Origin: Gammaproteobacteria bacterium
Lineage (GTDB): Bacteria; Pseudomonadota; Gammaproteobacteria; Steroidobacterales; Steroidobacteraceae
NCBI GenBank assembly: GCA_021323735.1
Contig: JAJPKM010000052.1
Location: 1-64,000, forward strand
Direction: 5' to 3'
Length of the DNA: 64,000 nt
This document shows, in pieces, positions 1 through 2,739 of the stretch. Position 1 is the first letter of the stretch. Each line of letters begins with the position of its first letter. Under the pieces are notes generated by a model that did no database searches, was not told where the DNA came from, and saw only the letters and a program-made list of their open reading frames with translations. Position numbers and translations under genes: made by a program.

Positions 1-54
1 CCTGAATTCATCCCGTCCACTTCGCACCTTGCGATGCGAAGGCACCATTTATTG
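1..54 (-). other. 5' part of a probable group I intron in the tRNA anticodon loop (cut by window edge)
   Basis: Directly after the CAT anticodon, the minus strand shows the start of a group I intron. A GTG at 45-43 can pair with the exon CAT to form P1, with the required U-G wobble at the splice site. A perfect 7-bp hairpin (CTTCGCA at 41-35 with TGCGAAG at 26-20) fits P2. The edge then reads GATGAATTCAGG, which resembles the start of the conserved core region leading into P4. The tRNA-Ile(CAU) intron of Azoarcus (subgroup IC3) has the same CAU/GUG pairing and insertion point. The P5-P9 core is outside the window, so this is inference from the visible 54 nt. Confidence 0.65.
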
Positions 55-91
55 ATGAGTCCCCTGCTCTAACCAACTGAGCTACAGGCCC
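55..91 (-). tRNA. 5' half of an intron-interrupted tRNA with anticodon CAT (probably tRNA-Ile2 or tRNA-Met)
   Basis: Read on the minus strand from 91, the sequence folds as a tRNA 5' half: acceptor strand GGGCCTG, TA, D-stem GCTC with a loop containing AGTTGGTTA, GAGC, then anticodon-stem strand GGGGA and loop CT-CAT. The anticodon CAT lies at 57-55. The expected continuation (rest of the loop, then TCCCT to close the anticodon stem) does not follow; an unrelated structured sequence begins at 54. A CAT anticodon can be elongator Met, or Ile when the C is modified to lysidine. The GGGCCTG acceptor and GGGGA stem resemble the intron-bearing tRNA-Ile(CAU) known from Azoarcus. The 3' half lies outside the window. 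Confidence 0.75.
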
Positions 92-189
92 GACGGCGCG
101 CATCTTAGCACGTGGCCTTTCCCAGGCCCGCATGCTCATGGGTTGGCACTTCGACAGGTAGTGACACTTCCATGGGTAATGGTGCGTCC

Positions 190-2739
190 ATGGGTTATCG
201 TACGGCGCCTGTGAAAACGCCAGCGCTACCTGATTTGCCCATCAATGAGGCCCTTCCGGCGCTCCACCAAGCCCTTCTCGAGCACCACAGTGTGCTCATC
301 GAGGCGCCCCCGGGGGCCGGAAAGAGCACCATCGTACCCATTGCGCTGCTGCCAAGCCCCTGGCTCAAGGGGCAAAAGATCTTGATGCTCGAGCCGCGAC
401 GCATCGCGGCACGGGCGGTGGCCATGCGCATGTCCGCGCTGTTGGGGGAACCCGTCGGCCGCACCGTGGGATTTCGCACCCGGTTGGAAACCCGCGTCAG
501 CGGCGAAACCCGCATCGAGGTGGTCACGGAGGGAATACTCACGCGCCTGCTGCAGGAGGATTCCGCTCTCTCGGGGTTAGGCTGCATCATCTTCGATGAA
601 TTCCACGAGCGCAGCTTGAATGCCGATCTCGGGCTGGCGCTGTGCATCGAGAGTCAGCAGACCCTGCGGGAGGACATGCGCCTGGTGGTGATGTCGGCGA
701 CGCTCGAACTCAAGCCGCTGGTGCGGCTGCTGGGCAGCGCGCCGGTGGTGTCCGCGCCGGGACGCAGCTTCGATGTGCGCACTCACTATGTGGCACGGCG
801 CAATGAACTCCATTTGGAGCTGCAAGTCTCGCAGGTGGTTCGCGCAGCCTTGGCGAAACACACGGGCGATGTGCTGTGTTTTCTGCCGGGCGCGGCGGAA
901 ATTCGCCGCGTGCAGCGCAACCTGGAAGAAGGCGGTCTCGATCGCGGCGTTCGGGTGATGCCGCTGTATGGAGAACTCGACGGTCCTGCACAAGATGCGG
1001 CGCTCGCGCCCTCGGCACCCGGTGGTCGCAAGGTCGTGCTGGCCACCAGCATCGCAGAGACCAGTCTCACCATCGAGGGCATCCGCGTCGTCGTCGACTC
1101 TGGAATGCGGCGCTACGCGGAATTCGATCCCGCGACGGGCATGAGCCGCCTGGTCACCGGCAAGGTCTCGCAGGCTGCCGCGGATCAGCGCCGCGGCCGT
1201 GCCGGCCGCTTGAGCGACGGGGACTGCTACCGCCTTTGGTCGGAAGGCACGCATGCGAGCTTAAGCCCGCAGACGCCGCCGGAAATACTGCATGCGGATC
1301 TCGCGCCGCTGGCGTTGGAGCTTGCCTGCTGGGGCGCGGCGGATGCGGCGAGCCTGGCCTGGCTCGATCCTCCGCCCACGGCACCGCTCGCCCAGGCGCG
1401 GGACCTGTTGCTCAAACTGGAGGCCGTCGATGCGGGCGCACGCATTACCACGCATGGGCGCGCGCTGCAGAGATTGGGAATGCATCCGCGCCTCGGCCAT
1501 ATGCTCGTGAAGGCGAGGGAATTGGGCGCCGCTCGACTGGCATGCGATCTGGCCGCCATCTTGGGCGAGCGCGATATCCTGCGCGCCGGTGCGGGTGCGG
1601 GCGCGCGCGATGCCGACCTGCGCCTTCGTGTGGCGGTGCTGCGCGGCGACAGCCGCGAGGTACCAGCAGGTGTCACGGTGGATGCCCGCGCCAAGGCCCA
1701 AGCTCAGCGCAGTTCCAGCCATTGGCAGCGGGACCTGCGCAATGCGCCCGACGCGGCGGATCCGCACGAAGCGACCGGCATTCTGCTGGCATGGGCCTAT
1801 CCGGACCGCATCGGGCGGGCGCGAGGCGACGGGGCGCGCTATTTGCTGGCGAGCGGCCGCGGCGCTCGATTTGGCGAGCCGCAGGCCTTGGCCAAATCAG
1901 AATTCATCGTTGCGGCTGAATTGGACGGTGCGGATCGCGAGGCGCGGATTTTCCTCGCAGCGCCCATCACTCTGGAGGAATTGGAAACGCATTTCGCTTC
2001 GCTCATGACAGACAGCGCCGACATTCATTGGGATGAGCGCGCCGGCGCGGTCAGCGCCAAACGCGAGCGAAGACTCGGCGCGCTGCTGGTGGAATCCTCC
2101 GAAATACGGGCGCCCGATCCCGACGCCATGCAAGCGGCTGCGCTGACGGGACTTAAGAATATCGGAATCGCAGGGCTGCCCTGGACGGACGAATTGCGTC
2201 AGCGGCAGGCCCGCATCATGCTGATGCGAAAATGTCAGGTCGCCGGCCCCGCGCCGTGGCCGGACTTGAGCGACGAGGCGCTCGAACACACACTCGAGGC
2301 GTGGGCGTCGCCGTGGATCATGGGCTTCACCCGGCGCGAACATTTCGCGCGGCTCGACTTGGGCAATGCGCTACGCGCCTTCCTCTCGCGCGCTCAAGAA
2401 AGCATCCTGGACCGGGAAGCACCCACCCATTTCACGGTCCCCAGCGGATCGCGCATCCCCATCGATTACCTGGACGGAGGGAACCCTAGTTTGTCGGTGC
2501 GATTGCAGGAGCTGTTTGGGTTGTCCGAGACTCCGGCAATCGCTGCCGGCAAGCTGCCGCTGCTTCTCAAGCTGCTTTCCCCAGCCGGGCGCCCGGTGCA
2601 AATCACCCAGGATTTGGTCAGTTTTTGGGAGCGCGGTTACCACGAGGTCAAGAAAGATCTCAAAGGCCGCTATCCCAAGCATTATTGGCCGGACGATCCT
2701 CACACCGCGCAGGCCACACGCCGCGCGCGGCCGCGCTAA
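190..2739 (+). CDS. hrpB: ATP-dependent RNA helicase HrpB (DEAH family)
   Basis: DExH/DEAH-box helicase. Visible motifs: Walker A PPGAGKS about 45 residues from the chosen start, DEFH (motif II) near residue 135, SATLE (motif III), and GRAGR (motif VI). The C-terminus carries the HrpB-specific region ending in GYHEVKKDLKGRYPKHYWP. From the ATG at 190 the protein is about 849 residues, close to the family's usual 810-840. An in-frame ATG at 172 and GTGs at 112 and 211 are alternatives; none has a clear ribosome binding site, so the start is uncertain. The cellular role of HrpB is poorly defined, but RNA remodelling is expected. It is divergent from the split tRNA and starts about 100 bp from its 5' end. 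Confidence 0.93.
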   Translation: MGYRTAPVKTPALPDLPINEALPALHQALLEHHSVLIEAPPGAGKSTIVPIALLPSPWLKGQKILMLEPRRIAARAVAMRMSALLGEPVGRTVGFRTRLETRVSGETRIEVVTEGILTRLLQEDSALSGLGCIIFDEFHERSLNADLGLALCIESQQTLREDMRLVVMSATLELKPLVRLLGSAPVVSAPGRSFDVRTHYVARRNELHLELQVSQVVRAALAKHTGDVLCFLPGAAEIRRVQRNLEEGGLDRGVRVMPLYGELDGPAQDAALAPSAPGGRKVVLATSIAETSLTIEGIRVVVDSGMRRYAEFDPATGMSRLVTGKVSQAAADQRRGRAGRLSDGDCYRLWSEGTHASLSPQTPPEILHADLAPLALELACWGAADAASLAWLDPPPTAPLAQARDLLLKLEAVDAGARITTHGRALQRLGMHPRLGHMLVKARELGAARLACDLAAILGERDILRAGAGAGARDADLRLRVAVLRGDSREVPAGVTVDARAKAQAQRSSSHWQRDLRNAPDAADPHEATGILLAWAYPDRIGRARGDGARYLLASGRGARFGEPQALAKSEFIVAAELDGADREARIFLAAPITLEELETHFASLMTDSADIHWDERAGAVSAKRERRLGALLVESSEIRAPDPDAMQAAALTGLKNIGIAGLPWTDELRQRQARIMLMRKCQVAGPAPWPDLSDEALEHTLEAWASPWIMGFTRREHFARLDLGNALRAFLSRAQESILDREAPTHFTVPSGSRIPIDYLDGGNPSLSVRLQELFGLSETPAIAAGKLPLLLKLLSPAGRPVQITQDLVSFWERGYHEVKKDLKGRYPKHYWPDDPHTAQATRRARPR

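What the first reader, a model, noticed from the sequence alone, without database searches (positions are those of the whole stretch)
1..91. tRNA(CAT) split in its anticodon loop by a probable group I intron
Seen: a complete tRNA 5' half (91-55) ending exactly at the CAT anticodon, then, instead of the 3' half, a GTG that can pair with CAT (P1 with U-G at the splice site), a perfect 7-bp P2 hairpin and a core-like GAATTCAGG at the edge. Known: group IC3 introns sit at this position in Azoarcus tRNA-Ile(CAU). Inference: a self-splicing intron here. Such introns are rare in gammaproteobacteria and only 54 nt are visible, so its type and any maturation machinery are open.
Basis: partly seen in the sequence, partly recalled or inferred. 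Interest (0 to 1): 0.8.

Follow-up and report, generated by a model that had tools for sequence, protein, structure and literature searches.

The report
Self-splicing intron in tRNA-Ile(CAU) gene
The edge of this window cuts through a group I intron inside a tRNA gene needed to read the isoleucine codon AUA; the same intron sits at the same place in nearly all examined members of its genus and in many relatives, so it is of a known kind, with an extra conserved RNA hairpin.

Summary
Window 91-55 (minus strand) is the 5' half of a tRNA-Ile(CAU) gene; 54-1 is the first 54 nt of an intron that continues on contig C4 of the same assembly, which shares 100 end bases with the window's contig. On C4 the intron is 231 nt, scores 69.5 bits with Rfam Intron_gpI (cut-off 50), ends in G and is followed by the tRNA 3' half. 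Joined, the halves make a clean 77-nt tRNA. Covariation over 58 related introns supports the fold: 96.5% of cells paired, 0 of 500 shuffles as high. None of 43 other tRNAs found in the genome is an intact tRNA-Ile(CAU). It is not rare here: 20 of 22 other genomes of the genus show it, and the genus' introns form one group in both trees; deeper descent is unsettled. It works like the Azoarcus IC3 tRNA-Ile intron, but this lineage carries an extra hairpin between P7 and P3, like P7.1 of the phage td intron. The kind is known (Azoarcus, Burkholderia, Acidovorax); the hairpin makes it a variant. Splicing was not tested.

The parts
55..91 (-). 5' half (exon 1) of tRNA-Ile(CAU), ending at the anticodon CAT
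   Evidence: joined with the 3' half on C4 it gives a canonical 77-nt tRNA with CAU anticodon and encoded CCA
1..54 (-). first 54 nt of the 231-nt group I intron; the other 177 nt and the tRNA 3' half lie on contig C4 (C4:101-277 and 278-317; loci L006, L107)
   Evidence: exact 100-base overlap of contig ends; Rfam RF00028 69.5 bits on C4:34-268; boundaries
43..57 (-). P1: CAUCA (57-53) paired with the internal guide UGGUG (47-43), U.G at the 5' splice site (between 55 and 54)
   Evidence: first four pairs identical in 58 of 58 aligned introns, fifth pair forms in 41 of 58
20..41 (-). P2 hairpin, 9 bp, with GNRA loop GCAA
   Evidence: all 9 pairs show changes on both sides in some rows, though the first fails in 23 of 58; L2 is GNRA in 58 of 58
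10..15 (-). 5' strand of P3 (partner is on C4)
1..5 (-). start of the 5' strand of P4 (partner is on C4)
112..2739 (+). HrpB-like ATP-dependent helicase reading frame, divergent from the tRNA gene (start codon not settled); a neighbour, not part of the intron
   Evidence: ORF; the name is recalled, no family search was run; a similar frame lies beside the tRNA in 19 of 20 same-genus loci compared

Best explanation
The window edge cuts a tRNA-Ile(CAU) gene (the tRNA whose C34 is made lysidine by TilS so that it reads AUA; recalled pathway) that is interrupted right after the anticodon, between U36 and A37, by a 231-nt group I intron of IC3-like build. The precursor is transcribed leftwards out of the window. 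The intron folds (P1-P9, P3/P7 pseudoknot), binds guanosine at P7, cuts after U36 at the U.G of P1, then the freed U36 attacks after the terminal G of the intron, joining CAU to AAUCC and restoring the anticodon loop. The intron has no ORF of note, so I infer that it does not move by itself now. Shown: anatomy, covariation, uninterrupted sites in relatives, distribution, one group for the genus. Inferred: that it splices, that it needs no protein, and how it was inherited beyond the genus.
For: Complete intron and 3' half on the overlapping contig. Joined halves give a clean CAU tRNA. Of 100 distinct tRNA-Ile(CAU) sequences read in the fetched loci (chosen partly for having the intron) 77 have an insert after CAT ending in G before AATCC and 23 run on without one; the search asked for a 3' half of that form, so the boundary is partly built in, and 10 loci without such a 3' half in reach were not counted (3 of them run on without insert, the others stop first). 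Covariation over 58 introns: 72 pairs, 96.5% of cells paired against 35-42% when slid; 32 pairs with changes on both sides; 0 of 500 shuffles as high on any of five measures. TilS at 142.4 bits, cut-off 93.6. None of 43 other tRNAs is tRNA-Ile(CAU); the two other CAT tRNAs read as elongator and initiator Met. Of 107 matching genomes none shows both the C and the A state with the pattern. The 19 introns of the genus form one group (99/98; also one group).
Against: No RNA data, so splicing is not shown. P3, P4, P5 and P7 hardly vary and give no covariation of their own. The genome is in 58 contigs and 95.94% complete; no tRNA-Ile(GAT) or tRNA-Trp is among its 43 detected tRNAs, so an intact second copy in a gap is not excluded. 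The C48-C4 join rests on a 100-base overlap, not on reads.
Confidence: 0.95

Rival explanations
1. The tRNA gene was broken by an integrated element using it as attachment site, and the resemblance to an intron is chance.
For: The window alone shows only a tRNA half ending at a contig edge.
Against: The 3' half follows after 231 nt that match the group I model; relatives have the same insert at the same place.
Confidence: 0.01
2. The intron is degenerate and no longer splices; an intact tRNA-Ile(CAU) copy lies in an assembly gap.
For: The assembly is incomplete and some other tRNAs are missing from the 43 found.
Against: Splice-site U.G and the P7 pairs are kept in 58 of 58 aligned introns; a single-contig relative (G031) has one match to the tRNA-Ile(CAU) pattern and it is of the intron type.
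Confidence: 0.03
3. The C48-C4 overlap joins contigs of two different organisms, and the window's own tRNA differs beyond the edge.
For: Contigs of other genomes also end inside this intron: L163 (G005), L119 (a record of 11858 bases) and L205 (G853), as expected when co-occurring species share a strongly conserved stretch.
Against: The 54 nt in the window are already this intron, so the identification would not change. C5 and C7 of the same genome overlap by 107 bases across a tRNA in the same way.
Confidence: 0.05

Closest known systems
Azoarcus sp. BH72 tRNA-Ile(CAU) group IC3 intron, and group I introns in tRNA-Ile2 of Burkholderia and Acidovorax (PMC8450103, passage)
   Same: Same tRNA and, by recall for Azoarcus, the same position; small intron without ORF; P1 with U.G; GNRA loops in P2 and P9; no P5abc (Azoarcus details recalled).
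   Different: The Azoarcus-like introns met here (L215, L247; so called from recall, not by comparison with an Azoarcus record) have 35 and 39 nt between the two P7 strands; 74 introns of this lineage have 61-118, the extra being a hairpin between P7 and P3. The Burkholderia and Acidovorax introns were not examined.
Synechococcus tRNA group IC3 intron
   Same: Described as sharing highly analogous secondary structures with Azoarcus in core and periphery (PMC4498298, passages).
   Different: Other tRNA (recalled: Leu); no extension between P7 and P3 in that description.
Phage T4 td intron (group IA2)
   Same: Has an extension (P7.1/7.2) inserted between P7 and P3 (PMC4498298).
   Different: td lies in a phage protein gene (recalled); here the host is a tRNA and the extension is one hairpin.
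[quoted passage not shown]
   Same: Gammaproteobacterial tRNA genes (PMC4853749, passage).
   Different: Other tRNAs; that paper says their structure and type were not determined.

Membership tests
Group I intron | Conserved core P3-P8 with the P7 guanosine site, scored by the Rfam model | tested here: met
   69.5 bits, cut-off 50, model positions 1-253 of 253; P3, P4, P6, P7, P8 paired in 99-100% of cells over 58 introns
Group I intron | U.G pair of P1 at the 5' splice site and terminal G of the intron | tested here: met
   U.G in 58 of 58; all 77 inserts end in G
Group I intron | Exact excision restores the host RNA | tested here: met
   in silico joining gives a canonical tRNA; 23 distinct uninterrupted sequences in relatives
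Group I intron | Guanosine-dependent self-splicing | not testable with these tools
   no RNA experiment
Subgroup IC3 (Azoarcus/Synechococcus type) | tRNA anticodon-loop host, small size, GNRA loops in P2 and P9, no P5abc | tested here: met
   L2 GNRA 58 of 58, L9 GAAA 57 of 58
Subgroup IC3 (Azoarcus/Synechococcus type) | No extension between P7 and P3 (the difference from td as stated in PMC4498298) | tested here: not met
   61-118 nt between the P7 strands in 74 introns and 91 in L167, against 35 in L215 and 35-51 in 18 of 21 other measured introns (exceptions L238 60, L239 75, L014 53; L234 not measurable); inner helix 100% paired with both-side changes at 3 of 5 pairs
Subgroup IA (td type) | P7.1/P7.2 extension between P7 and P3 | tested here: inconclusive
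   a hairpin is present; its basal 4 bp never vary and are not in the isolated minimum-energy fold; no subgroup model was available
tRNA-Ile2 (CAU, lysidine) | CAU tRNA distinct from both Met tRNAs, with TilS in the genome | tested here: met
   lysidine itself not testable

The most novel reading that the evidence does not exclude
A separate, long-lived lineage of tRNA-Ile(CAU) introns with an IC3-like core and an IA-like P7.1 hairpin, whose conserved URAUNA bulge may be a docking motif, carried for long in Gammaproteobacteria and making the reading of AUA codons depend on a ribozyme throughout a genus. It would link two intron subgroups that are usually kept apart.
Probability: 0.4. Interest if true: 0.5.

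Novelty: new variant of a known kind. Interest (0 to 1): 0.36.

Why it matters
tRNA finders skip such genes: ARAGORN in its default mode reported no tRNA-Ile(CAU) in any stretch of this genome given to it, and the tRNAscan-SE 2.0 authors name group I introns as the cause in 36 genomes that lack an fMet or Ile2 call (PMC8450103, passage). The intron is present throughout a genus, apparently as the only tRNA-Ile(CAU), which makes it a test case for how long an ORF-less group I intron can last in an essential gene. The conserved extra hairpin gives a ready test of what a P7.1 element adds to a small IC3-like ribozyme.

Tried and rejected
Rejected: broken tRNA or attachment site (3' half and core found). 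Rejected: intron with its own endonuclease (longest stop-free stretch 52 codons here, 114 in any of the 77 introns). Tried without use: ARAGORN with introns allowed sets the intron off by a few bases and calls a Gln tRNA; uninterrupted relatives settle the site. Tried, noisy: an automatic search for the P3 3' strand misfired on many introns, so I used the distance between the P7 strands. A motif count for the extra hairpin was first written too strictly (54 of 77), then corrected to 73 of 77; of the four misses L202 has the hairpin with a small change, L037 has a run of N there, L167 has a different stem and L215 lacks it. Checked: other CATA tRNAs of some relatives could have been second tRNA-Ile(CAU) copies; the two looked at from that set (L139, L140) have another acceptor stem and read as Met tRNAs.

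Rows dropped: of 72 main-lineage introns 58 went into alignment A1; left out were L019, L026, L031, L033, L037, L053, L063, L116, L184, L200, L201, L202, L207, L209. L203, L146, L147, L167 and L215 had been set aside, although the first three carry the same hairpin. The first tree used 70 introns; L112, L113, L121 and L137 were left out because they carry no group code, besides L037, L167 and L215. Put back, those four break the single family group (see full report).

Papers tried and not held. Literature searches. No listed title spoke of group I introns in Steroidobacteraceae tRNA genes or of a P7.1 element in IC3 introns, but lists were capped (15 to 25 shown of 24 to 682 papers), and the library lacks most subscription journals. 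Passages, not whole papers, were seen of PMC3984707, PMC4033280, PMC8450103, PMC11835236, PMC4498298, PMC6125680 and PMC4853749; of all others the listing only.

Full report
What is in the window. Read on the minus strand, 91-55 is GGGCCTG...GACTCAT, a complete tRNA 5' half ending with the anticodon CAT, and 54-1 follows with intron sequence. Inside the window ARAGORN finds no tRNA and Rfam no family at its cut-offs. The window starts at base 1 of contig C48.

The rest of it. Contig C4 of the same genome begins with the last 100 bases of C48 on that strand; no other overlap length from 20 to 299 fits. On C4 the Rfam group I model matches at 34-268 with 69.5 bits (cut-off 50) over its whole length. 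The intron runs from base 47 to 277 (231 nt, ending GTG) and the tRNA 3' half AATCCCTTGGTCCTCGGTTCGAGTCCGAGCGGGCCCACCA follows. Joined in silico, the halves give a 77-nt tRNA with all arms paired and anticodon CAU. Loop and stem fit tRNA-Ile2 (recalled). TilS scores 142.4 bits, cut-off 93.6. Of 43 further tRNAs found by the tRNA model, fetched and called by ARAGORN, none is a tRNA-Ile(CAU); the two with CAT read as elongator and initiator Met. No tRNA-Ile(GAT) or tRNA-Trp is among the 43, and the assembly is 95.94% complete, so a hidden second copy is possible. AUA codons are rare but used: 3 of 35 isoleucine codons in the neighbouring helicase frame.

Why the contig stops here. The first part of the intron is nearly the same in related species, and contigs of other genomes end inside it (L163, L119, L205). 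C5 and C7 of this genome overlap by 107 bases across a tRNA-Lys. I infer a fork in the assembly, not an element end.

Structure. On an alignment of 58 introns (72 had been listed) I drew P1-P9 by hand from the window's intron and counted pairs: 72 pairs, 96.5% of cells paired, 32 pairs with changes on both sides against 23.3 on average in shuffles, 0 of 500 shuffles as high, 35-42% paired when partners are slid. The slid control is lenient because the structure was drawn on one of the rows. P1 has the U.G pair at the splice site in 58 of 58. P2 carries a GNRA loop in 58 of 58, P9 a GAAA loop in 57 of 58. P3, P4, P5 and P7 are almost unvarying and give no covariation of their own. One P9.0 pair reads A-U in 46, G-U in 11 and G-C in 1. 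Pairs at the edges of P1, P2 and P9 and all of P5a fail in a good part of the rows (23 of 58 at the first pair of P2), so their exact form is not fixed.

The unusual part. Between P7 and P3 this lineage has an added hairpin, in the window's copy CCUG-A-GCGC...GCGC-UUAAUGA-CAGG. The inner helix is paired in every row, with both-side changes in 29, 17 and 1 of 58 rows at three pairs. The basal CCUG/CAGG never varies and is not in the isolated minimum-energy fold, which instead lengthens the inner helix by U-A and G-U, pairs that all 58 rows also allow; the basal stem is therefore inferred. In its favour, L167 and L239 have basal stems of other letters (GGGUGC/GCACCC, GAUG/CAUC) that form in the fold, though the L239 fold is no better than shuffles (49 of 200 as good). 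The bulge reads URAUNA in all 58 aligned rows. The motif is in 73 of 77 introns; L202 has it slightly changed, L037 has N, L167 another stem, L215 lacks it. Between the P7 strands lie 61-118 nt in 74 introns, 91 in L167, 35 in L215, and 35-51 in 18 of 21 other introns measured, the exceptions being L238 (60), L239 (75) and L014 (53). PMC4498298 (passages) says the td ribozyme (IA2) is like the Synechococcus and Azoarcus IC3 ribozymes except for a P7.1/7.2 extension between P7 and P3. By that description this lineage is IC3-like with an IA-like addition.

Distribution. The group I model matches in 38 of 60 relatives, own included, among them 20 of the 22 other genomes of the genus (G005 only at 34.8 bits, under the cut-off); not all matches outside the genus are this intron. 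With a pattern that prints the base after CAT, 107 of 148 relatives (own included) match: 50 have C, the start of this intron type, and 57 have A; none has both. In the genus 20 of 22 have C, none A; G002 and G013 (86% and 82% complete) do not match. Genera g10, g21, g30 and g496 have both states. A does not always mean no intron: L215 (G033) is an intron beginning with A. No match does not mean no gene: G045 and G058 have an uninterrupted gene with another stem. Across the class a narrower pattern finds 24 of 369 genomes, own included, and across the phylum 2 of 398, own included, the other in the same class. Variant D arms escape these patterns, so the counts are lower bounds, and the class may include former betaproteobacteria (recalled). 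The group I model over the phylum matches 25 of 299 genomes, many in other tRNAs by reading.

Who it is. A named scan returned 30 records, all titled MAG. I take the window to be Steroidobacteraceae; its own record was not named.

Descent. In a tree of 70 introns all 19 of the genus form one group (99/98) and all 37 of the family another (97/84). A check tree with four more named introns keeps the genus as one group, but there the 37 family introns need two changes and starred branches force two; the bootstrap of that tree had not settled. Families f97, f95 and f17 and genera f1g13 and f1g501 are not single groups either. So descent within the genus is well supported, deeper descent with losses is likely but not shown, and transfers are not excluded. 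A helicase frame like that of the window lies beside the tRNA in 19 of 20 same-genus loci.

Known or not. Group I introns in bacterial tRNA genes are known from cyanobacteria, alpha- and betaproteobacteria (PMC4033280, passages), in tRNA-Ile2 of Burkholderia and Acidovorax (PMC8450103, passage) and in two other tRNAs of Beggiatoa and Thiomargarita (PMC4853749, passage). The kind is known; this member was not seen in the capped listings searched; the added hairpin makes it a variant.

Noticed in passing
L014 (G051:C27:99536-99756): A group I intron sits in the anticodon loop of a tRNA with anticodon CTT (tRNA-Lys by reading the loop), with a short extra hairpin between P7 and P3.
   Followed up: partly
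L239 (G478:C1:2334779-2335017): Intron in another tRNA (probably tRNA-Lys by reading) whose P7-P3 insert has a UAAUA bulge and a differently lettered basal stem; the extra hairpin may be shared across tRNA hosts.
   Followed up: partly
L215 (G033) and L247 (G557): Azoarcus-like introns (likeness recalled) at the same tRNA-Ile(CAU) site; L215 is in the window's own family, so two intron lineages use one site.
   Followed up: partly
   Followed up: partly
L017/L237 (G029) and L038 (G033): Group I introns in what reads as 23S rRNA, two close together in G029; the L038 match is long (651 nt) and may hold an ORF.
   Followed up: no
L018, L019, L020, L022, L026, L027: In these same-genus genomes the tRNA-Ile(CAU) gene ends ...GGGCCCACTA, so CCA is not encoded, unlike in the window's genome.
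   Followed up: no
G000 contigs C5 (end) and C7 (start): These contig ends overlap by 107 identical bases across a tRNA-Lys(TTT); probably adjacent, or a repeated tRNA.
   Followed up: partly
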